Assembly (NCBI GenBank): GCA_947561715.1
Contig: OX387200.1
Location: 18,292,501-18,356,500 of the forward strand
From: Ascidia mentula
Taxonomy: Eukaryota > Chordata > Ascidiacea > Phlebobranchia > Ascidiidae
Length of the DNA: 64,000 nt
Direction: 5' to 3'
Numbering within the stretch: position 1 is the stretch's first letter; every line of letters begins with the position of its first letter. Shown here piece by piece: positions 16,128-57,530 of the stretch. The notes under the pieces were generated by a model. It saw only the letters and a list, made by a program, of their open reading frames with translations. It made no database searches and was not told the DNA's origin. Made by a program: the position numbers and the translations under genes.

Positions 16128-16243
16128 ATGGGAAAGGACCAAGAATTTTTGGAAGCTTCACGGACTGGCAATCTCCAAGTAGTTGAACGTTTGTTGTCAC
16201 CCAAAGCAAAGTCAACAACTCGAAGCCTTGTGGCAAGCTTTGG
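16128..16243 (+). CDS. ANKS1: ANKS1 exon 1 (start codon)
   Basis: Residues 1-38 and two bases of the next codon: [20 protein letters not shown]. Donor TTTGG|GTAAGC. Confidence 0.95.
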
Positions 16244-37200: not shown

Positions 37201-40200
37201 TAAGAAATACAGGTGTTTTGCCAGTTAGAGTTCACCGAAAAATGTATTTGCTACAATTACATATAAGCGTATAGCTCTGAGTGGAACATAGACCAGACGT
37301 ATTATTGTAACCGCTCGGGCCTTTAAAAGCCCATTGCTGCCAACAATAGAACGATAACTACTGCTGACATGAACCGTGATAGTCACAATTAATCGTTCAA
37401 GTTAATTTAGACGCGAGCCCAGCTGACCGCCGATGTCAAGTCGACCCGGAGCTTTTCATCTCCCAGCCTGTATGTAACGGACCTTTTATCTCGTTTTGTA
37501 AGTGGGTCATTACCCGTCCATTATATACTGCCATCCTTCCCTTTATTGCTTACGCAGTTCATCTGCAGAACTCATGCATTAACGTTCACAGTAACGACCA
37601 TCACAGTGAGTAAGAGCTGAATTGATATCGAGTTGGTTGCGGCAGTTAAATGTGAGTTTAGCGTGATGAGACCAGGTAGCCGTGATGGCTTTGTTGCCTT
37701 GTTACAGTTTAAGGCCCTGTTACAATTTAAGGCTACCAAGCGTTTGGGGATCTGTGTTGTTATTTGCAATTTCGTTGCTCTGACTCCAATATTGACATGT
37801 GGTTCTTAAAATTCTACAGACAACTGAGAGTTTCATTATATGCAAATCAGGCAGGAAACAGAAGAGTAAAGTGGTCCTTACGAGCCTCTTGATCCCTTTG
37901 TGACAGCATTGACATATTGACGCCGAATGTCTCAGGGGCTCTAAAACGCTAAAAGTGTGTTTCGCATTTTAAATACTTTTTTAAATCATTTTTTGACCGT
38001 TGTGCTCCGACGAAAGTTTAAGAATACTCCTGGGCCGGACATTTGGTAACTGCTCACCTTGACCATATAGCCTAATGCCCAGCGTATCACACCTGTTTAC
38101 GCAAATCGCGAGCGTTTGGGTGCCATCGTTCACAATTAAAACGCATGCGATTGCACCAAGGTGACGAGCGAGTGGCAACAATGCCTTATCACGCGTGTGG
38201 CGTAATTAATTAAACCGCTGTTTACGGCTGATCCGATTGGTTAGAAGCAGCTTTTACTGCGAAACCAGTTTGTCTTCCCGCTAGCAGTACCCACCATGCT
38301 GTTATGTATATAGTAGCAGAAGCGAGGTGGTGCAGTGTTCATACCTGTGCATGTGTTTCTACAGCTAGCCATAGTTTGGTATTGTGTAAGCGGATTTAGG
38401 GTGTGTCACGTCGTGGTATTTTGGGAAATACAGTTTTGCTGCGTCTCCCCCGACGACGGGATACTGGAAAAATAGAAATATACGAAGCGGGACGTTGGCG
38501 ACGAAGCGGATTTCACGCGCGGTAAGTGACTTTGTCGTGTTTGAACTCGGGGCTTTGTGTTTGGTTTAATACCCACGAGGCTTAGACAGTGTGGTTAATG
38601 GACAAAGTGCCCCTTCGCGAGACTACCTTCAGTTATGCCGCCGGCATGCTGGTGTAACATGAAGGAAGTAGGTTTTTTTAATAGTATTTTTTCAAAGCGA
38701 AGTTTCTGCTGATTATTATCATTGATTTAAAATGTGCCTTGGTGTTTTAAAATATCCTTGCTGGGTTTCCAGGTGGACAGATTACAAAAAGCCCTTTACA
38801 ATCTGGTGGCAAAATGCTTACCGTAATTCGACCAAATTAAATTATCACAATCGTATTTGTTTTCTCAACCCGAAAAATGTGTTCAGTGAAATTTCCTAGA
38901 AAAGCTTTTCCTTTAGTCTTGGAACTCTTTTATTTTCTTAGTTTATGTTCGTAGACAAAACTGGTATTTCATGATTTGGTTGAAAATATTCCGATTAGAA
39001 TAGATCGAACAAAAACAACGTTCCAGCGGTAAACAGCAAATCTAGTCGTGTTTGTAAAATTTTCCGTTGCAAACACTGTAAAGCATACAAACAAGGCTCT
39101 CGAATCACGGACTTTTGTCCTCGGTAACGTCAAACTGCTCAAGTGTCGCGTGAATCACATCACATTCGCGCGTCAATCGACCCCAATCCAACCCGTTGCA
39201 TGAAGTGTTGCTCGGCTTGCCAACTTTGCTGGACGATAGATGGGTTGTTGAAACTGGAGGACCCTATAACTGGTCATGACGTAACCGCGATAACGGCCAG
39301 TTTCTCCCATCAAGAGAAGAGTGTCCTTGTTGGCAGGACATCCACTTGAAGCCACTTGAAGCTTCACAATCTTCTCTGGACGCGGAAGGATACTAAGGTC
39401 CGACCTCTAGCATCCTTGGCTTTGTTGCCAGACTTATTGGTATTACGATATCGGTCACTATTATTGTGCAAAAGGGCTTAAGATAAGGTCTAGTATTGCT
39501 ATAGTGCTGACACATCAGCATTTTTAATAGCAAACGCATTTGGTAATTTTTACGGCGTTTATTAAATGTGACAGAATGAAGAGCAGGCATTTGATCAACA
39601 TTTTCTTATTCACCCAACATGCGCCCGGTGGTGATGCTTGGAACTAAGCTCAACAACTTTTTTCAATCACAGTTTCAATGTAAATAGACAGTTTCAATGT
39701 AAAGGTTTACAAAGGTTCATTCTTTGGTAACTCCCTGTAGCAGTGGAAGTTGAGCCGTAAGAGCTTACCGAAACTCGAATGAATGGATCGTTAACAGACC
39801 AATGCAATGTACAGACTGTTGTAGTCACAGTTTAATTACCCGTAAACGCATTCCATTGTTAATGTTCCCGAATCGTAAAAAGACGCCGTAAACTCTCATC
39901 CGACACAAAAGAAAATTCGACTTCCCGGCCCTTTCCATAAAAAGCGGTTTGCGTTGTGAAACGAATCACATGCAAACCTCGGGTGGGAGACGGGGCTACG
40001 GACAATGGGAGAAAGGCTCTTCCCCATTCATTCGAAGGCATTCCAATCTATTGTGTGCCTACGACGGCTTGTCAACATGCATGAGTTGTCACCTTCATCT
40101 TATACTTGCCTCCAGGTAAAATGCCCCGCAACGTGTAGCGATTTTAAAAGCGTATACTAGGGTGGAGAGAATGGAGGATACGTTTTTGAAGCTAATCAAA

Positions 40201-43200
40201 TGTAGCTAGTGACTGTAATTGTTAAGGTATAACCACCTATGTGCACGGTAGTATTAAATTCATGTACCTAGAACAATCTGTGTGAAGTTACTGTACTCAA
40301 TTTTCACAGCTATAACAGTTGGAATACGGCGGGTAATAAGGAAAGACATTTTCAAGCGGAAAAGTGATGGTTAGGTTAACATTTAAATTGTCTATTTGTA
40401 AAGGATTTACACCCTGTTTGTAAAGGACATTGTACACACTCTGTAAAAAAGGAGGAGGTGCTAGTTAAACTTACATTCAGCGCCAATATGTTTTTTAGTG
40501 TTTACGATTTTTTTTAAAACCTATAAAAATGCCCGTTTTGGAAGCCGTGTGCCAATTGCGTCACACGCCGACATTAGAAACCGTAGTGAGTCATAAAGCG
40601 TGCTGGTAGGTGTAAAATTTCGACTGGGTTTACATTAAAAACGACAGGACGTGGGATATTGCCCAGTGTCACCCAACACGTCTCGACACGTGCCATAGTT
40701 GTTACCCCCAACGTAAACCACTATTCGCAAACAATAGAACACCGATGACGCATTGGTTTGGTTCAGGAATAGCTCGATTTTTGTCCAACGGACCCTCTCG
40801 ATTTTCATGGGGCTCAAATTTTGTTTGTATTGGAAGCTTTTACGAGCTTCTGAATCACTTCTACGATCACAAATCGAACCTACTCGATGGTCATCCACGG
40901 TTGTCCACAAGTGGTCACCTTCAAAGGATCGTTCCTTTGTGGTTTAACTTATAGCGTGAAGCGTTGGTAGAACGATTCTTCCCCCTTTAAACTGATATCT
41001 TCTTGTGTAAACTTACGTCTGTTTTACTGCTTGTATGCGTTTGATAAGTTGTTGAGGGGTTTATTAGAATCGTGGGTTTTTCACGAGCCTGTGTGAGAGA
41101 ACTTTCCCACGACTAATACAATATCACGTGTTGACTTTGCCTTGTTTGTTCCGATGATTCTGCGTTAATCGGTGTGTTTAGGTTTGTGGTGACACTTGAC
41201 TCTGTGGAAGTGATACAGGTGTCCCTTGTTTCCAATTTTCGCTGCCAGACTTTCGCAATTTCAGCAAGTCAGCCAATAAGGGCTAGATATAATTTCAAAT
41301 GGAAAACTTTTCGCAGCAACAGCAGCAGTGTAATGTGTTGTGCCACAATTGAGAGTTCGTCAGGGCCACAGGAGACTATAATGTAACCAAGCGAAAGGTT
41401 CCTCGTTGTTGTGTATTTATAACTACAGTCATTTTCGAAAGCCTTTGTGTGCATTTATATGTACAGGCGTCGCTACCTGTTGAAGTGGAGTGTTGACTGC
41501 TTTTCCCTAATAGACCCAACGAACCACGACCGATTCCAAGTAGAAAGAATATCTCGTGTCACTTTCGCTTCGCGGGCCAGTGCGCGCGGCTGCCGTCCCA
41601 AATAACCTGCTATAAACGACAATCTTCGTCGCTTTAATCGCGTGCCACTGTTGTAACATAACCCAACAACAGTGCGACCGTGCACTGGTTCGTTGCCTCC
41701 AAAACGCCGCTAAACGGTCTTTGATGGCGCAAATTCGCGTGTACCATCTGCACAGGTCCTGGGGTGGGGCACGGACGGTGCAGGGAGGGTCGTTTACAGC
41801 CGATGGGTGTTTTTGCGCGTCGGCGCACGCGTAGTTGCAAGCCTGACGCATGGACCGCACGTGACGCACTCCGCAAACTCGCCTCCTTTCTCCTGCATGG
41901 CCCGGTTTTACCTGTTTGCGTGCGAAGAAAGGTTGCACACCGTGGTGAACTTGGGCAACCGCGAAAACAACAACAAACCCCGCGGTAATGATCCGTTCTC
42001 ATTTCTTTTTGGAGCTTTTGCAGTGAATTTGTGAACGGCTTTGGTGTTCTTCCGCGCAATAAAACGCGTCCACGGTCGTAAGTTTGAGGCTAAAAAATAG
42101 CAGCGTTTTCCAGGCTTGTTGAAAAGCTGCTGTATGCGTGGATCGCACAGCACCCATTCGTCAAGACCTCGGATAAATACAAACACAAGTTGCGGAAACA
42201 TAAACCGTTGCCTTTACTACTACTTGTCACACCACGAAATGTAGCAGCTGTGTGCAGACTCGACCAAACTGCACGGTTTTACCGAATCGCTTCACCTGTT
42301 TTCGCCGCGCAAGACCTGACGCACTTGACCCGAGCCGAACCCTTGCTCTGTCAATCAAACTTTTCCAACCAGGGGCAATCTTACTACGCTCTGCAAGGTT
42401 TTTCGTTGTCCTGTACGCCTTTAATTGGCGTTTCGAGCCACTGAATAGTGCGTGTTTCGTTGAGACGTAATCTACACCGACGTGGAAGTGCACGGCCGAG
42501 TTTCTGGTCACGGCAATTCTAATTTACTGCTTTATTGGCTGGGGTTAAACGTTGGGGAGTTCTCAGGGCCATATTTGGCTTGCTTTGGGATGTTTTTCGG
42601 GGTGAAGTATAAAAACTGGAACCCGCGCTTGTTTGAGTTGGCCGTGCGTATAGACCCGGACCCCTAATTAGTAGAGGGTTAATTGTTTACTTTGGAGAGT
42701 CGACGGCATATGTAGGAAGCTTGTGTTATAACAATATACGTCGATTGTGCGCCACGTCGGCATGCGGAAGCCGAACTAAAGTTTGTTTTTGTGTTGATTG
42801 TAATCGCTCGGCAACTAACCTCCCCGCCAGTCTGTTGGCCGATTCGTTTGTTATTATTTTCTTTGTCCCCCAAATACTATGTATTTGCCTCCAGTTCAGG
42901 GCACTTTTCGGTAAAATCTGCAGATAAACCTAGGTTTTCTGATGATGTGAAACGTTATTAATGGGCTTTACTCTGCTTAATCACAACATCATCTTAACGG
43001 CAACCCCCTGGATCTGTCAAGGACCCGCCCTCGACCACTGTCGCCACTGACTCATCAGCATTCTTTGTGAGCAAACAATAGACAGTGACGTAGGCGTGTG
43101 CCCTTGTCGGTAGCCGAGCACAAACTCATGTTTGATCGCATGAGTCGTCATCTCACTTGCCATAATGCGGCCGGAATCTGTACATATAGAGAATCCGGTA

Positions 43201-46200
43201 TGATCTGAAGAGAAAGTCACAGCTTCGGTGTCTCGAACCTATGCTTTTGTTGCGAGAATTCGTTGCAAAAAAATTCTTAAAAACGTCGAATTCCTTCCAA
43301 TTTCAGCTTGACTCGATGTATTTCGGTGTCAGTGTCGCAATTTTGCTTTCGTAACAATTTTTTAATCGATATCAAATATTTCCGGACGATTTGCGACAGT
43401 TTCGGGATTTTTCGCCTGTCTGTGGCGTCAATCAGCATTCCTCTGCACTCCGGTTAACAGCATCAGCGACAGTAATTTGACGGAATTTGCGACAAGCCGA
43501 ACCGAGTTCACGCAGTTATTGCCCGTCTGACTGACGAGGGGTCGCCCGCCTTGAAACAACAAACAGAATTATCGTCGACTGATCGATGGCAAGGAAACCA
43601 TGGGACCGACTGTCCTACACCGTTTGCCGCACATCGAATCCGTCTTTTTGCACGCACTGACGAATAATTCCCCCGACTTGGACACCAAACTTGGTGCTCC
43701 GCAAGCCCTTAAGCGAGAGACTATCTTGGATAGAGTTACGGCGGCTTGGACCTAGGAAACCGACGTATAGTGGAAGGCTTGAGGTTGTGCAGTTGCTCGC
43801 ATGGAAGACTGGGGAAGGAAGGTGATCCAGTCGTGAGAACCAGGGCGGGGGCTGTTGTATCCCCACTGTGGTTATTGGTGTGTAGATGTAACGTGAGCTA
43901 GGTTAGAGACGTGTTGCAAGTGCCCTGTGGTGATGACATGGTGGGCGGGTGTAGTTCATGCGTATGGTTAACAGTGAGTCGGCTGCATCGGGAGGTGAGG
44001 TGTTCCACCCATGGGTGTCAAAACCAAGTAAACTGGATAGGTCTGTACTTCACGGTTATTGTTAATTTTTACAACGCCACCTCTCTGAAAGTGAGTTTCG
44101 CCTCTTGTTTTACAAATCGCATTGAACCTGTAGAAACCTTAACCTTAATTGTTCAGGTTCTAACATGCCGATACTCATGCAATTATATGGCTTAGGTAAA
44201 ATATGCTGTACAAAATATCACCCCCGCTACCTTTGTTCGCATTACCAATTTGGTGAATGAAACCCTCGGACGTCTAATCATTAATATTAACTGTTCTATT
44301 AGAATATAAATCGCCCCCGGTAATAGCAGTCTTCGCGAGGTAATTGGGTCGCATTCGCCGATCGGAGCCAAGTTAACTTCCTCATTCCGCTCTTCAACGA
44401 AATCGCTTACTTCGACCTTCTGTTGAAAGACATCAAACTGGAGTTGTCTCGCAGTTGGCAAAATCTCACACTTCTTCAACATCGGTCGCTTTGAAACAGA
44501 AGGCGGGGCGTCACCGACCCAATAACATAAGGTGTCACGTGCTGACAGCGACGTCACGTGCCTGTCGATCCGTGTCGGGTCGGCGCAGTTGGAGTCGCAA
44601 GTCGTTTGCGCGGGACTGCAGTCGGCGGAACACTCGTTGGCGATTAGAAGTCCGACTCGCGCGTGCAGCATGTTTACGAAGCGCGCGGAGGCTTTAACAG
44701 CTCGGTGGGCGTCCTTGTTAGCAAATAGTGTGGAGATAAGAGGAGTGTATATGAACAGGAGTGAAGAGCGTTGTGTTTCATTTTTGCAGTCTGAGGTAGC
44801 GTTGGAACTCAGAAAAGGAGTCCACTATATGGTATTAGTGGACCTGTAGTTTTTAGCGATTACGTCAACTACAGTTTTGTGAAACGGGTCGCGCCCGATC
44901 GTCAGGTGAGATAACGGTTCTTTAGTTTCGAACATCTCATCAATAATTCGTGACCGACCTAGGTGTCCTTCGCAGCCCAATCCGTAATAATTGATCACCG
45001 CGCGTCCATTTAAACGGTGCGCGACTCGTAATGGCACTGCAATTTATCTGTCCATCGCTTAATCGGATAACGCTAGCCAAAAAGCACCGCCCGCAAATTT
45101 CGATAGTCTTTCGTATTCTTCCTTGTACGAGCGGCTATTTCGAGGCGCGAGCACTTTCGCCGCGGGCGCAGATCAACTTAAAGTCGGCGAAAGTTTGAGT
45201 TTCGCCGTTCGCGGTTTGAGAGCGTGAAAATGAGAGCGGCCGCCTTGCTTACTTGTCCAGCGTGGCAACAAACAGATTATAGTGGTGGGTCAAGTGGATA
45301 ACCGTGAACAAAGCCTCGATATGTGAAAATGCTTAAGCGCTCGATTACAAGCGAGAACGTGGCTTTGTGTCCTTAGCTATCGCACAGGAATGTGGTGTTA
45401 TGACCTGTTATTCCTGTTGCATGCAAAAAGCTACTTATGTAAGCCCACTAATGAACCTTTGGCCTGAGCCCGAAGGAGGCGCCCCTAATATGTGCAGTGC
45501 AAACAGTTGCGCTAAGTAGCAACAGCAGTAAGTAGCGTTGACGCCCCTTTGGCATGTGAACCTTAACGCGTCGTCGCCATAGTTACCCCTTCGCATAAAA
45601 GTCACGCCTGGACGGGCACGGTTAAACGACGCGCCCGACCCATTACAGTGTTGACTTGAAAAAGGCACTTACAGAGGCGCGATCAACACTCGAAATTTAA
45701 AAAGCGCGATCTCTCCGTGGCCTCGCGGCATCAGCGAGAGAAAGGATTGCGCCACAGTAGACGTTGTCTAAACGCAGAGGTCAGCATATCACTGTAACAG
45801 GTGGAGCCAGCCGCAGAAGGAGCTGTCATAGTGGTTTATTCCGGCTGCTGTGCATTTGTTCCACAGAGATGGCTGCCAGTCTTAGTTTTGTATTGGGTGA
45901 AGGTTTATCGTTTTATCGTCACATCGGAACAGAGTGTCAAACAAGAGCGCCTAATTTGAGGAGCAAATAGAATTGGCGAGCGCTTGGCTATACGGGTGGA
46001 GTTCGACGCCCGCACGTTTAAATAAACAACCACCAGAGAAGGTTTTTGTCTGCTGCTTTAAAACTTGTTTGGCGTGGCAGGACGTTTACATTAGGTCGAG
46101 ACGTTTTTGGGGCGCACTCCCCATTCAGCGTCTGCTTGATTTAAGATAATCGACTCCCAAAAGCCTACAGGTAGGGCACAGCCATGAACAGTGACGCACG

Positions 46201-49200
46201 CACCTGCTTTAACAAGCTTTAATTGTGGATTCGCTTTAATATCGATGCCTGTCAAGTGGGTATGAGAGCTCAAAGCCGGTTTTGAGCGCAAAGGATGTGT
46301 TTAGAGTTGACGAGCGAGTGCTTTATGTGGCCTGTCAGATCGGTAGGTGGTATTTGCGCAGTTTTTGAGCTTGACAAAAGGTTAGTTATTAGTAAGGAAG
46401 TAACAAAGGTGAATTCCATGCCCGTCAATTGAATGATATTGTGTACTGTTCCCACGAATGCAAGCTACGAACAGTACGCAAATGTTGGAATGTTTGTTTA
46501 AAGTACACCTTTAAGAGACCCATGCAGTGTCGGGTATGGCCCGTGGCGAACCGTAATACTATTTTAAAAATTAATGTCAGGGCCTTTGGGCCGCGGGTGC
46601 ATTTGGTGTGAAACCTTTTCGTGTGACGTAAGACCGTCATTCATTATTGACACGCCGTGTGTTTTGTCTTCCCATTTGCAGTGTGAAAATCGCTATACTG
46701 CTATTGTGTTAAACTGCTGAGAATAACTGTTGATGCCCATCTACTCCCGAAAGAAGCGTTGTTTTTGTTGTTGGCCTTCGTTTGTGGGAAAGCGTGATGA
46801 CATTGCGTCATTGAATGACACAAGACACCACCAAGCCGTACAAAACCGCACCCGAAGCTCGCGCAGTGGCGAAAAGCCGAAAGTTCGCCGACAACAAGCA
46901 GCAAAAAGCAGCCGCGGCTCACCCGTTCCGTGGCGGATTAGCAAAGACATGGAGGTTACAAGTTGTTTACCCGACTTTCCACTTTGCTTCGTCTTCAAGA
47001 TGTCATCGCGCCCGCGCGGTAAGACTTCAGGAATTTTGCCAGTCGAATCTGCCTGCTCGCGTCGCCCGTCATCAAAGGGAGACTTAAATTTTTTAATTGC
47101 ACGTTAATCGCGGGCGAAGCGCTGTTTGTTGCGCTTGCATAACTATCTTAGCATTCTGTACACATGCGGGTTTGGCCGCCTTGGCACTACTCAGGCGCCG
47201 CGCCATACACAAACACAGGCCATTACTGCGACCACCTGACAGCACTTCAATTCGCGCGATCAACAACTTCTAAAGTTACAACTTACGTGTGATTTACCAA
47301 TCACGTCCATCTCGTTTAATCGTTGTTTACTGTGCGATTGCGCTGGCTTAAACATTTACCTGTCTTAGAATATTTTGTAATCCCTCGCGTAATCGCGGTT
47401 ATATCGGGAATTCCTATATCGGGCTGGGTCGATGAATCAGTACCGACCTAGTAATGGATGTTTCGTATTACTGATCGGTCTAAAACCGTCGGGATCTGAT
47501 ATGAGTCCGCAATGCTTATGCGAGGGATTTTCTGCCGGATCCTTAAAAAGCTCCCCCTTTAGCCCAATATGGCACCAAGTAATCCACAGTGAGCTGTTTA
47601 TATCGCGGCTACTCGGAAAAAAAGTTAAACGAAATCCCCTAATTTACCGAAGTTCTCGCTACTGTCCCGCGCTTTCGGTAAATTAGGGAAAACTACATTC
47701 ACGTGACTTCGTTTACGCGATCTTGCCTTCAGCATTTTTGTAAGTCTAAACCCGCGCGCGGAGGCCATTGCACCGAAGTTCGCGGTCGATGAGTGTTCGG
47801 CTTTGGGGCTCTCTGCGTGCCACGCAAGGCCGTGTTATTAGGCTCCTCTGTGTTTAGTGTTGCAACAAATAAACTCGATCGTGGCAATTCTGCCTCCCGC
47901 GATGATATAACCCTTCGCATTGTTTTTATCCCTCAGGGCAACGCTTTTTACGCCCTCTATACGCGGTTAAATGTGCGTTACCCATGCATGAACAACGCAA
48001 GAGCCTTATTAACGTACCGCGTGACGTCACTGCGCGCTGATTGGCTTAGCGGTAGCTGTGCGGACGTCACGTGGCCCGCAGAAAGTTGCGGTTTTGTATA
48101 ATACTCGCGCACACGCTACTACCGTCATCACATTTCATGCCCCGCAGTGAAATTCGCTACTAATCTTCTTGAGTCTGCTCGTATTTGCGATTGTTTGTCA
48201 TTTGGCTGCTCAAGAGCTAGGCGCAGACTTCGGCTCTTAGGAAAGGTTTTCTGTTGGATACAAAATGAAGAACATGTCCTGGAAATTAAAAGGCAAGTGT
48301 TCAAGGGAGTTTGTCTTAACAACGTAGGGTCGGATCAACTAAAGCAAGGGTTGTTTTTGACGAGTAAAGGTGGTGGTAAATTGTGCCAGGCAGCGCTGGA
48401 GTTTGTACCTGCATGGCGTTGTTGATTCAGTCGTAAGCGTCCCAAGTTCGCAATCCATCACGTACCGAAACCCGTGCACTCTGTACGCAGTATATATTTA
48501 GTTCGGTTTTACTGTTGTTTGTCGTCGCCCGGCGTTGAAACGACAGCGCGAAAATTCCAAGTCGGTAAGATGGATTGCGCAAGGCCGCGGCCGTTGAACT
48601 TCGCTTTATGAGCCCTCGTTAGCAATTGCGGCCCGCAAACGGTGTTATTTTGTCACGAGCACGCGCGATCGCTGCTTAGCGGAGACTCCCGCTAACGTGT
48701 TATTACCGTACGCTGTCCACTTGACGGCGTGACAGCGAATGTGGGACTTGTTTTTGTGGTGGTCGGGAGGTGTTTTGATGAAGCGCAACCACACTCAAGG
48801 TTTTTCTCCGGTCTTTGACATAACCGCGTGCGTGGAGGGCAGGGTAAGCTAAAATGAATATTTCATAGTCCCATACGTCGTGTAGCTTTCAATGCAGCCC
48901 AAGGATCGAGATTAGATCGGCCAATGTCGCGACAATCGGGGTTTCGTTCTCTTGCAAGCCTCCACGCTCAGAGACGGGCATGAATTATTAACAATGCCGT
49001 TGGATGCTGTGCGATGCCGTATACGAACCATGTTTATGCACTTTCTCCGCATTACCATCCATCCTTGTGGTTTGTGTTGAAGTATTAATGAGCCAATTTA
49101 ATATCGCCAACCGGGAGTAATGTTTGCCAAGCGCGGAAGCCAGGATGATGGGAGAAACGACACTTCTTGACGTCAGCCACAACCCGCCACTGCTACAACA

Positions 49201-52200
49201 CATGCGGGCGCTTTCTTCGACGCCTCATTTTTCGCAAACGCTTTTCCGTGGCTTCGACTCGCACCTAACCTTGTGTATTCTCGCCACAAGGGAATCGAAC
49301 GAAAAGGCTGCTTTTTGTTGAGTGCGACCGCACCGAGACATTATTGCATCGGAATTCGGATCGATTTTCTTCCCCCCAACGCGCGCCCATCAATATTTAA
49401 TAATGCTTTGAGTGGGGAGCGTTGGCGTTCTGTCGCCGCTGTGAGCACATACTGTGACAGGAAGGGTCGAGGGTCCTTGCATCTTATATGCGAGCTGCTC
49501 GGAAGATCTGCTTTGCGCACAAAGCGGATTATGTCGTAACAATAGACAGGCCCATTGCATTGGTGATCATTCGTCCCCAGAGTGCGAATTGCTTGTTGAG
49601 GACAACGTGTTAGGGTTGTAGTTTTAAGCGTTTTGTGTTCTTGAGCGAGGCAAAGGTGTGTCAACGTTGCTGATTAGTTTAAAGGGCTTTTCTGTGCGTT
49701 AATTATACGAGGCCTAGCTTTTTGTCCTAAAACTACAGCTTACTTGGCTGTCGAATTTAAGCAATTCAGTAGCACAACTCAGGAAGTTTCGATCGGTATT
49801 GTAGCGTCCAAGCGACGTCGCATTTCCTCCACAATGCATTCGATGCCTTATAAGCCGTTACATTTAATCTTAAACGTGTTTTTTATTTGCCTTAGTTAGG
49901 TGTTTTTTTCTGCACTCATTCCCGTCAAAAAATATTGCGTAACATAGTTTTAATTCAGCTTTTTATGCTTTTCCATAAATATGAAACATTGTGTGTGTCT
50001 TTTAGGTCTGATACGAGGTGCTAGCTACAAGTCCAGATCGAAGCACTGTTACGGTACCACGACTGCATCGCACCACAAGTCGGCCAGCGACAGTGACGGC
50101 TACGGCGCCGAGTTCGACGACGACATATCAGAAGGCTCAGCCTCACGCGTTACCCCAGCCATCGTAAGGGATCACGTTCCGACATCCCGAGGCGGTCCAA
50201 TGACTCTCGACGGACTTTCCAAACGCCAAAACCCGGGAAATTTAGATTTGGCGCTCGATCCTCCACACTACAGTACACCTGGAAGACGGGAGATGAGAAG
50301 AAAGTATACGCCCGGACGCAGCGACGGAGACGATTCGCCCCTCTCATCCTCTCCATCTTCGCTGGATGAGTTTGATGGTCGCTTGATGAAGGAAACGTCT
50401 ACCCCGCGGGTTTCCAAACCCCGAGCTTCTGTCAATGGTCAGTTGTAGCTGATTTATTCGAAGGAATGAAAATTTTAGCATCATGTTATTACTCATTTAT
50501 CTACACCAGATTCCACGGTAGCTTATGCGGATCACAAGAGAAGCAACTCCTTCTACGACAACAATAACAACAGCTCGAACTCATCCAAGTCAAAAGGATC
50601 TCCTGTGAAAGTGGAATCGCCGGGAGACCGACTTCCAGACTTGGCTACCATCGTGGACACTGTCACGGCGGTCAGGAGCCGATCTTCCCAAGGTTGGTCT
50701 ATTATCTGCATTATAGTAAGCATGCGTTGACTTACGGACTTGATGCTGTTCCAGCTATAGCAGTTTTAAGGTGTATACGTCAAAGCAAATTGCGCCATTG
50801 TTGTATTGATTTTGGGGTAGTGAATCACCATGTAAATATAGGAATTTAACAGGTTAACGCCCCCTTACATAATGTGTCCATTGTTGCATCCACCAGGAAG
50901 TAGCAGCGATCCAGCATCGGGATCATCCGCATCATCAACACTCGCAAAATCCGTACCCATGGTTCAGGCTGATGTTAAAGAGGAAGGCGAACCCGGCAGC
51001 GAGAACGACGAATGGGCGCAGGTTTGAATTTTATTTTGTGAAACACTGCCGAATGTATTATCTCTGATGGATTAATATGCCCCCAAGCTAATAAATTATA
51101 ATCCACTTTGTTGACACGGAATGCGGAATCCCGACCAGCGTGTTTAGTCTGTGGAGTTAATCACTGTGTACTGCTGTTACCAGATTGCCAGTATAATGTC
51201 GTCTATCGGTGGCGGTCTCAACAAAGGCCCAGTCTACGCGAAGGAGTTTGAAGAAACCTTTTGGAAAATCATGACAGGTAATTTGCTTTCAACTTAAAGT
51301 GTCTTTTCCCGCAGGCAATCTGCGCCAATTCCTAATTGCGAAACTTATTTATTGCTTTTCGTCATGGCGTGGGGGCGAATCAATGGACCCAGGCAGCGAC
51401 GTTTCAGCTGGATCGATGCGATGCAATAAATTTCCTCGAGAAATCGAAATGCATTGTCCCTGTAGGTGCCGTAAAAGTGCGAGGTCTGAATCAGGATGCG
51501 CAATTGATTCGCTCCTTAATCTGTACAAGATTTCTTCCATGAAATGTGGCAAACGTTTTTCGTAAGATTTTCGATAAAGGGCCATTTCAATCCGCACAAT
51601 AAAGGTTGCAGTTTCAAACTCTGCGACTTATAGACCGCAGCGCCTGTTTTAAGTGACCTACCCTTATAACGCCTTTGCAGCTACATCTAATAACAATTGT
51701 CGCACCTTCGGGAATCCACCTAATCCATTAAGCCGCCTTGCCCAAAATAACACCGGTCGATGCAGTCCAGCGGCACCTCTTCCAGCAAAGCGGTATAATC
51801 CTGCTCTTTGCGCAACACACAACAGGTCTCATACTTGCCCGTAAATTAAGCGGCATCTGTCCCTGTCTTATTGGTTCGTGCTCGAGTTCTCGTTAAATCC
51901 CTGCGCAGCGAGTGCCTTGCGGTGTGCGGAACAGGTGCTAGCCTTATTAAAAGGCTCCGCGCGACCCAATTCCCCGCTTTGTGATGTAGATTTACCGCGG
52001 CAGGTGCGGATGGTGCGAACCTGTGCAACTGTTGTGCAAACTCATCGTTTTTATCCCAAATTTCAACATGTGGCTTTGTGTCGGTGACTTACCAGGACAA
52101 TGCAACCACTGCATAACATTTTCTCAGGTTGAAAACTGCCGTCTGTAAAAATTGTATCAAATTTCACCAATCTGTCGCCCTAAAGAAACATTGAATAAAA

Positions 52201-55200
52201 CCACTCCCGTCCTTTTATGTGAAAAACAAACAATTCTCCGTTTCGTCGTCATCATATTGCCCATAGCGGGTGTCTATAAAAGCGCGCGCCCTATTTTTAC
52301 CGTCCATTGGTTGTTGATCAACCCAATCTCACGCCTCGCTGATTCATTTTGGGAGTTCGCAGCCGCTTGCTCAACCCTCTGTTTATATCATCCACAACCC
52401 GCTGTCAGTCCTAAGCCTCTGTGTCGTGTTCCGGATCGCGCCAACTGTGCGCCGACCCGGTTAACCTGGATATGATTTTTGCAGCTAAACTTGCGTGCAG
52501 ACGCAGTCGGTGTTGTGTTGTTGTCGGTCTGGGGTTCGCTTAGCAGCTTATGGCGCGCGGGGAAGGTCGTAACACGTTCCCACGGGCTTAAGCCTAAACT
52601 TTCCCACATTCGTCTTCACCGCCAAGTTCGCTGGTCGCTCTTGAATGCTTTTGACACAAATGTAGTCACGTCCACTTGAAAGCCACTGTTGTGCTTGACT
52701 GGGTTTTGTTTAATGTTGAGACAATCTCAATGCAAGCCAAAGAGCCAAGCTCAATATTAACAATAGTTTTTAAATTTACCCGAAATTTGCACTTCCTTCG
52801 TAATGCCAACATGTAATCATGTCAAGGCAAATAAATACACTAAAATAATATAACTTTATTACACAAAATTTCCCCTAAATTTTGAAGTTTAAATAAATGT
52901 TGTTTCGTTTCGCTTTAGGATCTGAGCTTCCGAGACAGGTGAGCACTTGGTTGCAAGAACTTGGACTCCCGCAATACGAAACCGTGCTGAGTGGAAACGG
53001 ATTCGATGACGTCGATTTTCTTGTGAGTGGATTTTGCTTAATTGGCTTCTGCGTGTTGATCAAAATTTTGATTTTGAAAAGGATATACTATTTTTTTTTT
53101 AAACCAATAAAAGCATCATCTTTTATGTAGGATTTGTAAATTAAAGTGTTCCGTTTGTTGAGGCTTGATATTTTGCGATAACTTGCCAGAGTTGCTACAA
53201 ATCCAACCGCACGGCACTGGACATTTAAGTTATAAATTTAACCACATTGCAGGCGGGCGACATCCTTGAAGAGCGTGACCTCACTGATATGGACATTCGA
53301 GATTCATCGCACCGCCGTCGGCTTCTCGAGTCTGCCAAGAACCTTCCACGTCTCCACCCTCTCGCTCCACCTGACAACCCTTCGGCGCCATCTAGCGTTG
53401 GCGAATGGCTGGCATCCATCCACTTGCAGCAATACGAAGCAGCTTTTGTGAGCAAGGGCTTTGGTTCGATGAAGTCGGTGCGCTCGATGACGGAGGCTGA
53501 TATTAAACCGGTGGGTGGTGGTTTTAACTCGATCGGCATTCATGTTATATAAAGGGGAATGTTTTGGGTTTTAATCAGGATTTTGAACTGTGGATAAAGT
53601 AAAAGTAATTTGGAATTTGACTACTTTACAAACAACCTTTGTTGCGAAAAAAGTTTGTTAATTTGTTTTTTCCGTTGGCATTTGGTGGAAAAAAATACTT
53701 CAATCGACTTAAAATCTCCGCAAATGCCAAATCTATTAACAACTACACGAAAATTCTCTTAATTCCGTATCTTCATTAATTATTTCATTGTTATATTTTC
53801 ACCATACCTTTGTATTGAAAATCCTGATTTTTCACATTTTGTTTACAGCTCGTTTCCAAGCGCGGTCACTTCAAGAGAGTCAGGTCCTCTCTCTTCGGTC
53901 GACTGAAGGATGACAAGAAACCCGCGTCAAATCAATCCACCCGAAGCCGTTCTAACAGCCAGGTAATAATAAGATGCACGTGAATGCTCGCTTTCCACAA
54001 AATACATCGTATGTGCGAGTTTGGAGTTAATTGCGTACTGTCCGTATATTCAAGGCTTGATGAGGAAGTTGGTATAAGTTTCATAATGTCAACTGATGAA
54101 TGATATCATGGGGTCCACTATTTGTTTTCAACATATTAGATTAATCTTTCATGGTCAGTTTTGTGTTTTAAGCAACAATCGGCTTGGTTGATTTTATAAA
54201 AATGTATTTAAGGAAAAATGACGTTTATAATTCAACCTATTTAATTAGACGCTTGGTTAGTTGCATTTGTTTCGAAAACAAAGCAATAATATATAATACC
54301 ATTAATTTAATAGGATTTAAAATCAATGCAGCTGAATTTAACGCAACCAAAATACGTGCATCGCATTCAAACGAAACAGGGCAACAGGCAATTGCGCTGA
54401 ACCACGCCCTTCGATAGCGAGCGTTTCCGCAATACAGCAGCGACTTTTTAGGGCCCCGCTGTTTTCGTGCAACCGGTCTGTGAGCAATAACTTTCTGTCC
54501 CCGATCACCGATTTTGCATCGTTGCGTCCCCGCTAACGCACTCACGTCTATGCGACCCGTTTTCTATCCCGGATGTGACGCATGGTAGTGTTTCCTACCA
54601 GCAGGCTGCCATTGGCACGGCATCAGGCACTAGCGTCAGGTACAGAACACACATCGCGACGTGCAGTGAGCCGGGTATTGCGCTCCATTCACTAAGTGTA
54701 ATACTTCAGCTTGGATATGAACGGTCGCTCTTTTAGGCCGCGATTCAGCAGCATTGTGTATTTGCATGAAAGCAGGGTAGAACAGTTTAACGAAGCCTTA
54801 TTAGGACAAACAGGCGTTTATAATCAAGCTGGGTTGCTGCGTGATTTATAGAAACGGAGGCGTCACTGGTTGCTTATCGCTTGTAGTGCATGTACGTGCC
54901 ATCAATTAGTTGGAGGCTGCTATGTTTACGTCATAGTCTGGGTGCAGCACAGTGTGTTTAGACTTGACACGATATTGTAACTGTGCTGTTGCATGTAAAA
55001 GACCTGGGATTTGAAGCAATGATGGCATTGAAAGTAAAAAATGTGCGCTTCAAAAGCAAACTCCAGAGAAATATCGTTTGCGTGGTGGAGTTGAGCGAAA
55101 ACATTGCAGTAATGTGTAGGCCATCCGACACAGCAAAGCACTACAGTAACAAGCGCAGGCGTTGCAGTAAACGCGACATACCTCCAGTGACGTCATGATG

Positions 55201-57530
55201 TAGCTAACCGTCAGTATTTACATTGTGTTTCAGGTCAAAGCAAGTCCGCCCCTCTCACGCAGTCCGCTGTTGGACTCCGCCAACTTCTTCAAGGATTACA
55301 CCAACATAGTTAAATCTCGTGGTACAACATTGTCGAGCACACGTAGCAACGACAACGCGTCGCCTGTCTTCCCCTCTGGAACAGTGAGCAGCACCAGCAG
55401 CGCAGGCAGCGGGAAGCCATCGGGTTTGCCAACAGAAAGGGTTCCCACGCAAGGAGATCCTTCCGCTACCGAAACGCCAGCCAGAGGTCGTAAGTCGAGC
55501 AAAACCGCCACTGCGCCGGCAGACAACGACGAACAAGCCCAGCGGTCCCGCCATCGTCATAGGAAATCATCACGTGACAGTGGACGATCCAAGCCTCGTT
55601 CGCGGTCTGGTTCGCATTCGTCGAAGACCAGGCGTACAGAGTTGTCTGTATTTGTGGATAAGAGCGCTAAGGGCCAGCACGCGAGGCAGAATTCAAGCAG
55701 CGGGACTCGTTCGTCGCACCACCGTCAACGTTCCCACCACAAATCTTCTTCGTCGCTGAAGAGCGTTAACAGTGAACAGAAGGAAAACCTTAGAATGGTG
55801 AGTTTAGTGTTAGTGTGCGTACTTTAAAAATGATGGTGTCTGCAACACGAGATATATGTACATAATTTCATTACTTGACCCTTTCGGTGGATAAAAAATG
55901 GTTTTGTTTGATCCAACCGCTTAAAACGAATGAACGTTAGATCAATCTTGTTGTGGTTTTTGTTCAAAAAAGCGATTGTGTGTTACTAAAAAGCTGAACT
56001 TTGGTTGAATATCTTGCTGAATATAAACAGTCGAGCAGTAAACACAAGTCGAGTACAGAATTTCAGCCTGTGTCCTCATGCGGTTTGGTGCTGGCCATGA
56101 AAAAATCTATATTCGAGATGCAGCATTTAAAACCTATTTTGTGTTGACTTTACAGAGCAAACCGGGCAACTCCACCGACATTCCCGATGTTGAACGCGCG
56201 ATTTTTCTCGCCTCGGAGTCGAGTTCTGGGGAGGCGCTCAACCTTCGACCCCCGAACGAAACAACGCGAGAAGTATCTGTACACGCATGGCGCCACCAAG
56301 CGGACACCCTTATCACCGGTTGCTGCAACTACCAAGCTTATGTGAGTAGACTTTGGCTGTTTTTGTTTGTTTAGTTTGTATATAGAATTTGTATGTATAG
56401 GTAAAAACTAAAATTGCCAAAAATCCTGCTTGACGTAAAATAAAGTTAAAGCAGCAAAACTGTTCACAAAATTTGCAAAACGTTTTAACAGTTATATAGC
56501 TGCGTAGAATCTTTACCATAGCAGCTGCGTCAAATATACACGGAAGAAGATGGCCACTGTCTTACTACATAACGTATTTGGAAAAAAATAACCAATTTGT
56601 TTTTGTTTCCAGTACCTCGGTTCGATGCTGATACACGAGCTAAAAGGAGTTGAATCGACAGTGGAAGCTTGCGCTAAGATGCGAAAATCCACAGATTCCA
56701 TGAAGAAAATTCCAACCATCGTCCTGGCGATCAACTACACCGGAGTCAAATTTATTGATTCCAAATCCCAGGTTGGTTCAGAGTTTTAAAAGTGCTGAAA
56801 TAAGTTCAGATCAGACATAGAGCTTGGCGTGTTCGTTTGGTCCGTATACGTGATTTAAAAAAATTGATGTAGCCTATAGTGCAACAGCATACGCCAATCA
56901 CCAATCACACAAGTGAAATTCAACAAAATCTTTAACAGCAGCGACCACAACATAAAGATCGTATATGTATCTCTGTTACAGCACGAAATCGCAGAACACG
57001 AGATCTGCAACATTTCGTTCGCCTCCCAGGATTCAGAGGATCTAGCCACGTTCGCTTACATCACGCACGACGTGCGCACCGGCCACCACTATTGCCACGT
57101 ATTCCGAGTCACAACAATGGTGAGTTAAATTAGAAATTTCCCGCGTGCCTTTTGCATCCGGGATACCGAGTACTGTTTTTACTCCGTTTGTTTTGCGAAA
57201 GCTCGCTTGACTTTGTGTCCTTGAATGGTGAATATTACTCACAAAAGGTTCACAGCCACATGTATGGGTCAAAAATTAACGCCTGTTCTGTAATGAAATT
57301 CAAATAAAAAAAGGTAATTTTTGCTTCTTATTAAAATCTTGTTTGTTGGTGCGAATGTCAAACTGTGTTTCGACTTCCTATTTTTGCTAGGAAACGGCAT
57401 ACCTAAAACCGACCGTCTTATTTTCCAGGACATGGCTTACGAAATTATCCTCACCCTCGGCCAGGCGTTCGAAGTCGCCTACCAGCTGATCCTCAAAGAC
57501 AAAGCGATTAAAGAGCGCGAAGTGAGATGA
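16128..57530 (+). CDS. ANKS1: ANKS1: ankyrin-SAM-PTB adaptor (Odin/AIDA-1 family)
   Basis: Seen: 28 exons, 5,736 nt, 1,911 residues plus TGA, all GT-AG with every phase matching. [15 protein letters not shown] equals the family N-terminus. Six ankyrin repeats span about 40-275, then a long Pro/Ser-rich disordered region (277-1370), SAM1 (about 1377-1437), SAM2 (about 1452-1515), an Arg/Ser-rich linker and a PTB domain (about 1763-1905). Known: vertebrate ANKS1A (Odin) and ANKS1B (AIDA-1) are cytoplasmic and synaptic adaptors binding Eph/EGF receptor complexes (ANKS1A) or PSD-95 and APP (ANKS1B). They have about 1,130-1,250 residues; the extra length here is nearly all disordered linker (exons 7-19 and 24). 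An upstream in-frame ATG at 16116 would add four residues; 16128 matches the family. The protein ends right after the PTB fold, lacking the vertebrate tail. A single pre-duplication gene is inferred, so A versus B cannot be assigned. Introns of 300-800 bp not listed separately hold no recognised exon. Confidence 0.96.
16450..16530 (+). CDS. ANKS1: ANKS1 exon 2 (ankyrin 1)
   Basis: Residues 39-65: [20 protein letters not shown], the PNVNC..GYT.LHH signature of the family. Acceptor GTTCAG|G, donor CATGA|GTAAGA. Confidence 0.95.
16642..16798 (+). CDS. ANKS1: ANKS1 exon 3 (ankyrin 2-3)
   Basis: Residues 66-118: [46 protein letters not shown]. Acceptor CTTCAAG|G, donor GAGCAG|GTATGT. Confidence 0.96.
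17068..17160 (+). CDS. ANKS1: ANKS1 exon 4 (ankyrin)
   Basis: Residues 119-149: [20 protein letters not shown]. Acceptor TTTTACAG|AAC, donor CCTCTG|GTATGT. Confidence 0.96.
17228..17431 (+). CDS. ANKS1: ANKS1 exon 5 (ankyrin 4-5)
   Basis: Residues 150-217: [20 protein letters not shown] and [20 protein letters not shown]. Acceptor GCTGTAG|GTT, donor AGAACT|GTGAGA. Confidence 0.96.
17704..17881 (+). CDS. ANKS1: ANKS1 exon 6 (last ankyrin)
   Basis: Residues 218-276: [20 protein letters not shown], almost identical to vertebrate ANKS1. Acceptor CCTATCAG|GGT, donor TTCTAT|GTAAGT. Confidence 0.96.
18197..18340 (+). CDS. ANKS1: ANKS1 exon 7 (linker, YIDM motif)
   Basis: Residues 277-324. An acidic/Pro-rich linker ([17 protein letters not shown]) ending [15 protein letters not shown]. 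Tyr319 in YIDM fits the YxxM type of SH2 ligand. Acceptor CGCACAG|CG, donor CACAAAG|GTGAAT. Confidence 0.88.
18341..21825. other. ANKS1 intron 7, 3.5 kb
   Basis: No exon that fits the phase-1 junction was recognised, and the open frames present have no family resemblance. It contains scattered half CRE sites around 20410-20520 and an inverted pair of GATA motifs at about 20273-20292. Confidence 0.55.
21826..21864 (+). CDS. ANKS1: ANKS1 micro-exon 8 (39 nt)
   Basis: Residues 325-337, [13 protein letters not shown]. Thirteen codons, phase 1 on both sides, so skipping would keep the frame; it may be alternatively spliced. Acceptor TTATTCAG|CA, donor TTTTCG|GTGAGT. Confidence 0.8.
21946..22074 (+). 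CDS. ANKS1: ANKS1 exon 9 (linker)
   Basis: Residues 338-380: [20 protein letters not shown] onward. 129 nt, phase 1 on both sides, so also skippable in frame. Acceptor ATCTGCAG|AA, donor CTAAAG|GTATCG. Confidence 0.88.
22330..23060 (+). CDS. ANKS1: ANKS1 exon 10 (large disordered exon)
   Basis: Residues 381-624. Opens [20 protein letters not shown]; rich in Ser/Arg/Pro and closes [18 protein letters not shown], a proline-rich SH3-type ligand. Not alignable to vertebrate ANKS1 by eye. Acceptor TTTGCAG|GT, donor CCCAAG|GTTAGG. Confidence 0.92.
23407..23538 (+). CDS. ANKS1: ANKS1 exon 11 (linker)
   Basis: Residues 625-668: [20 protein letters not shown], a proline-rich then acidic stretch, ending [11 protein letters not shown]. 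Acceptor GTTATTAG|GTT, donor GTCTCA|GTGAGT. Confidence 0.87.
24325..24376 (+). CDS. ANKS1: ANKS1 exon 12 (52 nt, YDNI motif)
   Basis: Residues 669-685, [17 protein letters not shown]. Tyr680 in the acidic context DEPTYDNI is a plausible SH2/PTB docking tyrosine. Acceptor TTTGTAG|GGT, donor CATGG|GTAAGT. Confidence 0.85.
24818..24954 (+). CDS. ANKS1: ANKS1 exon 13 (linker)
   Basis: Residues 686-731: [17 protein letters not shown], ending [10 protein letters not shown]. Acceptor CTTCTTAG|CG, donor CGAAAG|GTGGGG. Confidence 0.87.
25335..26075 (+). CDS. ANKS1: ANKS1 exon 14 (large disordered exon)
   Basis: Residues 732-978. [20 protein letters not shown] opens a short predicted helix at the place of the vertebrate conserved block after the ankyrins. 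The rest is disordered, with [18 protein letters not shown] and [16 protein letters not shown] fits the PxxxPR motif bound by CIN85/CD2AP SH3 domains. Acceptor TATCCAG|GCG, donor CAGCAG|GTATAA. Confidence 0.93.
26397..26622 (+). CDS. ANKS1: ANKS1 exon 15 (linker)
   Basis: Residues 979-1053: [16 protein letters not shown] to [12 protein letters not shown]. The ATG inside is not a start. Acceptor CTATTCAG|TCT, donor GAGCACG|GTATAA. Confidence 0.87.
26934..27050 (+). CDS. ANKS1: ANKS1 exon 16 (acidic linker)
   Basis: Residues 1054-1092: [20 protein letters not shown], ending [11 protein letters not shown]. Acceptor TGCTTCCAG|AT chosen because it alone gives the needed phase. Donor TTCAGAG|GTACTT opens the 23 kb intron. 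Confidence 0.87.
30070..30307. mobile_element. hAT-type MITE, 238 bp, in ANKS1 intron 16
   Basis: An 8-bp target-site duplication TATTAGAT flanks it perfectly (30062-30069 and 30308-30315). The ends are inverted: CAGGGGTTCTTAACC at the left, CACTGTTTCTTAACC read inward from the right. The 8-bp duplication and CA..TG ends are typical of hAT elements. It has no transposase, so it is non-autonomous. Its interior repeats a GGGGTCCATG motif. Confidence 0.9.
31021..31032 (+). promoter_or_regulatory. Perfect 12-bp CRE palindrome
   Basis: TGTGACGTCACA, an extended palindrome around the 8-bp CRE, typical of high-affinity CREB/ATF sites. In ANKS1 intron 16. Confidence 0.5.
34641..34661 (+). promoter_or_regulatory. 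GTCACGTGAC palindrome plus second E-box
   Basis: GTCACGTGAC (34641-34650), the CLEAR-type bHLH-ZIP site, is followed by CACGTG at 34656-34661. It lies in the 23 kb ANKS1 intron. Confidence 0.45.
44534..44560 (+). promoter_or_regulatory. Paired GTCACGTG E-boxes
   Basis: Two copies of GTCACGTG, 44534-44541 and 44553-44560, starting 19 bp apart. The second is fused to a CRE-like GACGTCA. These are sites of the bHLH-ZIP (USF/TFE/MITF) type. Confidence 0.5.
47637..47688. repeat. Perfect 15-bp inverted repeat (hairpin), 22-nt loop
   Basis: Left arm CCCTAATTTACCGAA (47637-47651) pairs perfectly with the right arm (47674-47688). No flanking duplication was seen. It may be a tiny MITE remnant or a transcribed hairpin. 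Confidence 0.85.
48022..48103 (+). promoter_or_regulatory. Candidate internal promoter of ANKS1
   Basis: In 82 bp: a perfect CRE TGACGTCA (48022-48029), a reverse CCAAT box GATTGG (48039-48044), a composite CRE/E-box GACGTCACGTGG (48063-48074) and TATAATA (48097-48103). Order and spacing are those of a CREB/NF-Y driven TATA promoter on the plus strand. A second TATA-like run lies near 48490, followed by a donor-like TCG|GTAAGA at 48565. Function is inferred. Confidence 0.5.
50006..50437 (+). CDS. ANKS1: ANKS1 exon 17 (first exon after the 23 kb intron)
   Basis: Residues 1093-1236: [37 protein letters not shown], then Ser/Pro-rich sequence. Acceptor TCTTTTAG|GT, donor GTCAATG|GTCAGT. The frame stays open upstream through the acceptor to an ATG at 49981 (see findings). 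Confidence 0.92.
50510..50692 (+). CDS. ANKS1: ANKS1 exon 18 (linker)
   Basis: Residues 1237-1297: [20 protein letters not shown], ending [11 protein letters not shown]. Acceptor TACACCAG|AT, donor CCCAAG|GTTGGT. Confidence 0.9.
50897..51021 (+). CDS. ANKS1: ANKS1 exon 19 (linker)
   Basis: Residues 1298-1339: [20 protein letters not shown], ending ENDEWAQ, which lines up with the vertebrate SEWEEI block before SAM1. Acceptor CCACCAG|GA, donor GCGCAG|GTTTGA. Confidence 0.9.
51184..51277 (+). CDS. ANKS1: ANKS1 exon 20 (IMSSI motif)
   Basis: Residues 1340-1370: [20 protein letters not shown] then [11 protein letters not shown]. The DKIMSSI-like motif is also found just before SAM1 in vertebrate ANKS1. 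Acceptor TTACCAG|ATT, donor ATGACAG|GTAATT. Confidence 0.92.
51278..52918. other. ANKS1 intron 20, 1.6 kb
   Basis: Between the IMSSI exon and SAM1. No exon or repeat was recognised; composition is mixed. Confidence 0.5.
52919..53022 (+). CDS. ANKS1: ANKS1 exon 21 (SAM1, first half)
   Basis: Residues 1371-1405: [19 protein letters not shown] then NGFDDVDFL, the N-terminal half of a SAM domain (W.LGL.QY pattern). Acceptor GCTTTAG|GA, donor TTTCTT|GTGAGT. Confidence 0.95.
53253..53510 (+). CDS. ANKS1: ANKS1 exon 22 (SAM1 end, SAM2 start)
   Basis: Residues 1406-1491: [20 protein letters not shown] completes SAM1, and [20 protein letters not shown] opens SAM2. Acceptor CATTGCAG|GCG, donor AAACCG|GTGGGT. 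Confidence 0.95.
53849..53962 (+). CDS. ANKS1: ANKS1 exon 23 (SAM2 end)
   Basis: Residues 1492-1529: [20 protein letters not shown], the last SAM2 helix, corresponding to the vertebrate GHRKRIL segment. Acceptor TTTACAG|CTC, donor AGCCAG|GTAATA. Confidence 0.94.
53963..55233. other. ANKS1 intron 23, 1.3 kb
   Basis: Between SAM2 and the Arg/Ser-rich exon. No exon recognised. A perfect CRE TGACGTCA at 55188-55195 sits about 40 bp before the next exon. Confidence 0.5.
55234..55797 (+). CDS. ANKS1: ANKS1 exon 24 (Arg/Ser-rich linker)
   Basis: Residues 1530-1717. Ser/Thr-rich, then strongly basic [20 protein letters not shown], a candidate nuclear localisation signal; AIDA-1 isoforms are known to reach the nucleus. 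564 nt, phase 0 both ends, so skippable in frame. Acceptor GTTTCAG|GTC, donor AGAATG|GTGAGT. Confidence 0.93.
56156..56341 (+). CDS. ANKS1: ANKS1 exon 25 (LRPPNE block, PTB start)
   Basis: Residues 1718-1779: [20 protein letters not shown] matches the vertebrate ITLRPPNEAT block. [12 protein letters not shown] begins the PTB fold. Acceptor TTTACAG|AGC, donor CTTAT|GTGAGT. Confidence 0.95.
56613..56771 (+). CDS. ANKS1: ANKS1 exon 26 (PTB)
   Basis: Residues 1780-1832: [46 protein letters not shown] strands and first helix. Acceptor TTTCCAG|TAC, donor TCCCAG|GTTGGT. Confidence 0.96.
56982..57119 (+). CDS. ANKS1: ANKS1 exon 27 (PTB)
   Basis: Residues 1833-1878: [34 protein letters not shown]; core PTB strands. 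Acceptor GTTACAG|CAC, donor ACAATG|GTGAGT. Confidence 0.96.
57429..57530 (+). CDS. ANKS1: ANKS1 exon 28 (PTB C-terminal helix, stop)
   Basis: Residues 1879-1911: [20 protein letters not shown], the PTB C-terminal helix, then 12 residues and TGA. A TGACGTCA palindrome begins at the stop codon. Acceptor TTTTCCAG|GAC. Confidence 0.96.
   Translation, partial: DMAYEIILTLGQAFEVAYQLILKDKAIKEREVR

What the first reader, a model, noticed from the sequence alone, without database searches (positions are those of the whole stretch)
48022..48570. Candidate internal promoter inside the 23 kb ANKS1 intron
CRE, CCAAT box, CRE/E-box and TATA fall in order within 82 bp, with a second TATA-like run near 48490 and a donor-like GTAAGA at 48565. 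They lie 1.4-2 kb before the exon that begins the SAM-PTB half. In mammals ANKS1B produces many AIDA-1 isoforms without ankyrin repeats from internal promoters. If real, this organisation predates the vertebrate ANKS1A/B duplication.
Basis: partly seen in the sequence, partly recalled or inferred. Interest (0 to 1): 0.75.

Follow-up and report, generated by a model that had tools for sequence, protein, structure and literature searches.

The report
Possible internal promoter in ascidian ANKS1
A sea-squirt gene with a 23-kb intron carries, 2 kb before its second half, a tidy single-copy cluster of promoter-type DNA motifs that may start a shorter form of the protein, but nothing in the sequence proves it and the claimed ancestry shared with the mammalian short forms is not supported.

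Summary
The intron is 27051-50005, 22,955 bp. The gene is a full-length ANKS1 whose best match is the ascidian Phallusia mammillata (74% over the 738 residues searched). The cluster scored highest in 264 kb of this genome (32.1; next 23.7) and its 801-bp surroundings match only themselves. But TGACGTCA is about nine-fold over-represented here. CRE-CCAAT-CRE occurs 23 times in 196 Mb, 7 of them one repeat family, against 44 for the backwards control. So the cluster is unusual locally but is not a demonstrated promoter class. The proposed first exon has a weak donor and four upstream ATGs. No ANK-less tunicate ANKS1 is among the rows listed (120 of 1,915; 120 of 211). The splice junction lies in a linker that barely aligns with the two vertebrate proteins compared, so descent from before the ANKS1A/B duplication is unsupported. 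Verdict: plausible intragenic promoter, about 35%; chance assembly and enhancer remain live.

The parts
16128..57521 (+). ANKS1 coding span: ATG 16128 (MGKDQEFLEASRTGNL), ANK exons to 17.9 kb, linkers, SAM1 piece 52924-53025, SAM2 from about 53388, PTB pieces 56613-57521
   Evidence: Phallusia P0002, 74% identical over the residues searched, carries ANK, SAM and PTB Pfam domains; ANKS1B and ANKS1A SAM chains are the best PDB hits
27051..50005 (+). 22,955-bp intron; flanking residues contiguous in P0002 (KFRGLIRG) and P0003 (RFRGLIRG)
48022..48029 (.). CRE, perfect TGACGTCA
48037..48046 (-). NF-Y/CCAAT box, CTGATTGGCT on the + strand
48063..48073 (.). GACGTCACGTG: 7/8 CRE overlapping E-box CACGTG
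48097..48103 (+). TATA-like TATAATA, starting 28 bp after the second CRE
48127..48130 (+). predicted start: CA at 48127 (-30 from TATA) or initiator-like YYANWYY with A at 48130
   Evidence: inference
48491..48496 (+). second TATA-like run TATATA
48565..48570 (+). donor-like GTAAGA (TCG|GTAAGA); the same six bases stand at the ANK-exon donor 16531
50006..50437 (+). first exon of the SAM-PTB half; in-frame ATGs at 50200, 50293, 50386 (the first conserved in P0002 as HPMTLDGLSKR)

Best explanation
The cluster is a CREB/ATF - NF-Y - E-box regulatory element that works as an intragenic promoter for an ankyrin-less ANKS1 transcript. Steps: (1) bZIP factors, NF-Y and a bHLH factor bind 48022-48073 (inferred from motifs); (2) TBP at 48097 sets initiation near 48127-48130 (inferred from spacing); (3) the RNA runs through 48.1-50.0 kb and joins the acceptor at 50005, either by the weak donor 48565 or, more in keeping with ascidians, by spliced-leader trans-splicing that discards the 1.9-kb leader and with it the upstream ATGs (inferred); (4) translation starts at Met 50200 and gives a protein with SAM and PTB domains but no ankyrin repeats (inferred). 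Shown here: the motifs, their order and spacing, no second copy found, the full-length gene around them, and in-frame ATGs in the downstream exon.
For: Motifs and geometry; TATA 28-31 bp upstream is also the preferred place in the tunicate Oikopleura (PMC6389100, passages). Top motif score of 264 kb. The 801-bp segment matched only itself in the genome. TGATTGGCTN{10,28}GACGTCACGTG: 1 match in 196 Mb, 0 in the backwards control (pattern fitted to this site). Of 16 non-repeat CRE-CCAAT-CRE matches it is the only one with TATAW 20-60 bp downstream. Local GC 0.49 and CpG ratio 1.38, like the high CpG score of Ciona promoters, whose commonest start dinucleotide is CA; 8,753 trans-spliced transcripts are reported there (PMC3333190, passages). 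Predicted ANK-less ANKS1A and ANKS1B isoforms exist in vertebrates.
Against: No transcript, chromatin or conservation data. No ANK-less tunicate protein among the rows listed (120 of 211, lengths about 387-1232; 120 of 1,915); the two tunicate hits seen are full length. CRE-CCAAT-CRE is not enriched genome-wide over its control (23 vs 44); 2 of the 23 overlap coding-scored segments (L031, L034); repeat members L039 and L040 have TATAW at the same spacing. Loose CRE+CCAAT+TATA groupings are common. Four upstream ATGs, weak donor, no in-frame ATG in the proposed exon. High CpG ratio covers 18-57.6 kb, so it does not mark this spot. The cluster is near-symmetric and its listed top score was for the minus-strand reading, so direction is not settled.
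Confidence: 0.35

Rival explanations
1. Chance assembly: in a genome where TGACGTCA is very common, a CRE pair with a CCAAT box and an AT-rich TATA arises now and then in CpG-rich intron sequence and does nothing.
For: CRE 8-mer over-represented about 9-fold and first of 96 like palindromes; 23 CRE-CCAAT-CRE places in 196 Mb, backwards control 44, about 10 expected by independent scatter (and arithmetic); two overlap coding-scored segments; loose groupings at 7 places in 264 kb.
Against: Highest score in 264 kb by a wide margin; extended NF-Y word, CRE/E-box and TATA spacing all fit together; 0 of 300 shuffles with all four.
Confidence: 0.3
2. Intronic enhancer (CREB/NF-Y bound) that acts on the distal ANKS1 promoter or a neighbour and makes no stable transcript of its own.
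For: The intron holds 7 of the window's 9 TGACGTCA sites (27278, 29678, 31023, 34193, 35419, 48022, 49168), 3.0 per 10 kb against 1.27 in the 150-kb control. Near-symmetric cluster without settled direction.
Against: TATA at a promoter-like distance; the CRE/NF-Y/TATA order is promoter-like (general knowledge).
Confidence: 0.22
3. Promoter of another transcript: a non-coding RNA or a gene nested in the intron, on either strand.
For: Near-symmetric cluster; long minus-strand ORFs beyond it on that strand (44192-44824, 210 aa, coding score 25).
Against: No Pfam match at gathering score for the 10 intron ORFs that I picked (best E 0.12); no homolog at E<=1 for a 425-aa join of three minus-strand ORFs; no Rfam gathering-score or tRNA hit in the window.
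Confidence: 0.1

Closest known systems
Mammalian ANKS1B / AIDA-1 short isoforms (AIDA-1C, AIDA-1D), PMC6684583 (passages), PMC1097723 (passages)
   Same: One gene with ANK, two SAM and a PTB domain; shorter products without ankyrin repeats
   Different: Those isoforms are seen as proteins or cDNAs; here there is only DNA. The splice junction next to this cluster lies in a linker that barely aligns with the vertebrate proteins.
Predicted vertebrate ANKS1A isoforms beginning MMWQCHLSS (P0180, Sorex; the same exon inside P0198)
   Same: ANK-less SAM-PTB protein from an internal start
   Different: The start exon abuts SAM1; no counterpart found in this window
CRE/CCAAT/TATA promoters driven by CREB/ATF and NF-Y (general knowledge, recalled)
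   Same: Motif types, order and spacing
   Different: Only inferred here; no binding or activity evidence

Membership tests
Pol II TATA promoter | TATA 28-31 bp before a YR start | tested here: met
   TATAATA 48097, CA at 48127; presence only, no start mapped
Pol II TATA promoter | Capped 5' ends at the site | not testable with these tools
   no RNA data
Intragenic alternative promoter of ANKS1 | First exon spliced in frame, or a usable downstream start codon | tested here: inconclusive
   donor-like GTAAGA with no in-frame ATG in the exon; ATG 50200 in frame downstream
Intragenic alternative promoter of ANKS1 | ANK-less product known in the species or kin | tested here: not met
   no tunicate among the 120 rows listed of 211 hits; capped list, and absence from a database is not absence from the animal
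AIDA-1-type internal start (vertebrate) | Homologous position in the protein | tested here: inconclusive
   junction meets only seven dissimilar vertebrate residues between gaps; no MMWQC-like exon in the SAM1-adjacent intron
Recurrent promoter syntax of this genome | CRE-CCAAT-CRE more frequent than control | tested here: not met
   23 vs 44 in the backwards control, which has the same base counts but no CpGs
Transposon-borne promoter | Multiple genomic copies | tested here: not met
   1 match, itself, to the 801-bp query (the tool warns that very common words are skipped); no similarity to the other 22 matches

The most novel reading that the evidence does not exclude
An ascidian, in the sister group of vertebrates, makes an ankyrin-less ANKS1 from a cAMP-responsive (CRE/NF-Y) internal promoter inside a 23-kb intron, its transcripts trans-spliced straight onto the SAM-PTB half: an AIDA-1-like short form present before, or arisen independently of, the ANKS1A/B duplication.
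Probability: 0.22. Interest if true: 0.5.

Novelty: new member of a known kind. Interest (0 to 1): 0.3.

Why it matters
If real, the short postsynaptic form of ANKS1 would have a counterpart outside vertebrates, under CREB-type control, and its regulation could be tested by reporter electroporation in a simple chordate embryo. As it stands it is a well-placed candidate; the test is cheap wherever RNA-seq or CAGE exists for an ascidiid.

Tried and rejected
Transposon-borne promoter: rejected (no second copy found). The CRE-CCAAT-CRE matches elsewhere include a diverged dispersed repeat of 7 members (L023, L028, L035, L039, L040, L042, L043); the site here is not in it. Nested protein gene: Pfam on ten intron ORFs that I picked and a database search of three joined minus-strand ORFs found nothing above threshold. 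Non-coding RNA gene: no Rfam gathering-score or tRNA hit. CpG island as a marker: rejected, since 18-57.6 kb is all CpG-rich. Vertebrate-type SAM1-adjacent start exon in 51.28-52.92 kb: none seen; a start peptide of P0170 aligned across the SAM1 acceptor at E 0.001, mostly through SAM residues. Papers with both 'anks1' and 'ciona': 0 in the held library. Conservation with sister species could not be tested. A coding-score look at seven other motif clusters gave a signal near one only and was uninformative. A search for TGACGTCAN{20,110}TATAAAAG did not complete and was dropped.

Full report
What the locus is. The window is G000:C67:18292501-18356500 of a 195.8-Mb assembly in 79 contigs. The + strand gene from ATG 16128 to 57.5 kb is ANKS1: the N-terminus MGKDQEFLEASRTGNL, ankyrin exons to 17.9 kb, SAM domains at 52.9-53.5 kb (ANKS1B and ANKS1A SAM chains are the best PDB hits) and PTB exons at 56.6-57.5 kb (recognised by their match to P0002, which carries the PTB Pfam domain). 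Its best database match is a Phallusia mammillata protein of 1,824 aa (P0002, 74% identity over the 738 searched residues); a Styela protein is next. So the organism is an ascidian close to Phallusia (inference).

The observation. Every motif is at the stated place. The second CRE has 7 of 8 bases. CA at 48127 lies 30 bp after the first T of the TATA element, and an initiator-like YYANWYY has its A at 48130 (CA position corrected from the printed sequence).

Is it more than chance? First-order Markov shuffles of the window gave a CRE pair within 60 bp plus CCAAT in 2 of 300, and with TATA in 0 of 300; a CRE plus one extended NF-Y word came up in 82 of 300. In 264 kb of real sequence it was the only CRE pair with CCAAT and had the best combined motif score by far (32.1, next 23.7; 12 shuffles reached at most 24.6; consensus weights recalled). 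Looser groupings of one CRE, CCAAT and TATA within 100 bp are common: 1 in the window, 2 in 50 kb nearby, 4 in 150 kb elsewhere. TGACGTCA itself is over-represented: 19 against 2.1 expected in 150 kb away from the locus, and first of 96 palindromes of the same G+C count in 264 kb (32; second TCACGTGA 12; median 3). Whole-genome search for TGACGTCA-ATTGG-GACGTCA in that order gave 23 matches, and 44 for the backwards control; the control has no CpGs, so it is not a perfect yardstick. Seven of the 23 are one diverged repeat family and two are a duplicated pair; L031 and L034 overlap coding-scored segments. About 10 would come from independent scatter (arithmetic). So the syntax is not a promoter class that this genome visibly re-uses, and a 64-kb window holds one at a rate near 0.75%. 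Of the 16 non-repeat matches, three have TATAW within 80 bp downstream (L029 at 10, L033 at 28, L041 at 66); only this one, L033, is in the 20-60 range, though repeat members L039 (28) and L040 (31) are too. A pattern fitted to this site, TGATTGGCTN{10,28}GACGTCACGTG, is found once, here.

Context. The 801 bp around the cluster matched nothing else in the genome. CpG o/e is 0.34 over the ankyrin exons (15.5-18 kb) and 1.05-1.22 from 18 to 57.6 kb. If low CpG marks past germ-line methylation, as suggested for Ciona (PMC3333190, passages), the cluster lies in unmethylated territory, but so does most of the gene. The intron's last 9 kb are slightly richer in G+C (0.479) than its first 14 kb (0.437).

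How a transcript would work. With the GTAAGA donor the proposed first exon carries ATGs at 48137, 48265, 48274 and 48413 and no in-frame start. The first in-frame ATG downstream is 50200, conserved in P. mammillata. In Ciona a large share of transcripts have their 5' part replaced by a spliced leader (8,753 trans-spliced against 6,312 not, PMC3333190, passages). If that holds here, no donor is needed: the acceptor at 50005 could receive the leader directly. This is inference.

The comparison with AIDA-1. PMC6684583 (passages) states that full-length ANKS1B has ankyrin repeats and that AIDA-1D and AIDA-1C lack them, with 'putative' start sites. In one search, a search with the hypothetical short protein (704 aa), the 120 rows listed of 211 hits held no tunicate; vertebrate ANKS1A entries without ankyrin domains did appear (P0162, P0165, P0170, P0180, P0198). 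P0180 begins with MMWQCHLSS directly before SAM1 and P0198 contains the same exon; I recall a similar start in ANKS1B AIDA-1a/c, which no call here shows. In the alignment of two tunicate and two vertebrate proteins the junction falls opposite LGRIRSL (ANKS1B) or AGRAHPG (ANKS1A), short and dissimilar stretches between long gaps, so positional homology is neither shown nor excluded. The place matching the SAM1-adjacent start, 51280-52923, has two CRE half-sites but no full CRE, and no MMWQC-like exon. So an internal start before SAM1 may be older than the split of the vertebrate paralogues, but the cluster at 48 kb cannot be called its homologue on this evidence.

Verdict. A real, well-formed motif cluster, seen once, in a good place. 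I put about 35% on promoter for an ankyrin-less ANKS1, 30% on chance, 22% on enhancer and 10% on the promoter of another transcript. Nothing here is categorically new.

Noticed in passing
whole genome; 264 kb sampled: TGACGTCA is by far the commonest of 96 palindromic 8-mers of its G+C count (32 against a median of 3), TCACGTGA second (12); the sampled contexts look mostly unlike each other. Why this ascidian genome is so rich in CREs is unexplained.
   Followed up: partly
L023, L028, L035, L039, L040, L042, L043 around base 1500: A diverged dispersed repeat with a 60-75 bp stretch between two CRE words (70-75% identity to L040 where aligned), which adds to the CRE count.
   Followed up: partly
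window 15501-18000 against 18001-57600: Sharp CpG boundary: o/e 0.34 over the ankyrin exons, 1.05-1.22 over the rest of ANKS1, as if only the 5' part had been methylated in the germ line.
   Followed up: no
window 47637-47688: 15-bp perfect inverted repeat (CCCTAATTTACCGAA / TTCGGTAAATTAGGG) with a 22-nt loop, about 330 bp upstream of the cluster.
   Followed up: no
window 44192-44824, minus strand: 210-aa open frame with a coding-like score of 25 and no homolog or Pfam match.
   Followed up: partly
window 16119-16128: A splice-acceptor-like ttaccag|g ends one base before the ANKS1 start codon, as expected of spliced-leader trans-splicing or a 5' UTR intron.
   Followed up: no
P0180, P0198 (vertebrate ANKS1A): ANKS1A has a predicted MMWQCHLSS start exon directly before SAM1, like the one I recall for ANKS1B AIDA-1a/c: a possible internal start shared by both paralogues.
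   Followed up: partly
window 12-9083, minus strand: A TPR/CHAT-domain gene, probably TTC28-like (name recalled), on the opposite strand.
   Followed up: no
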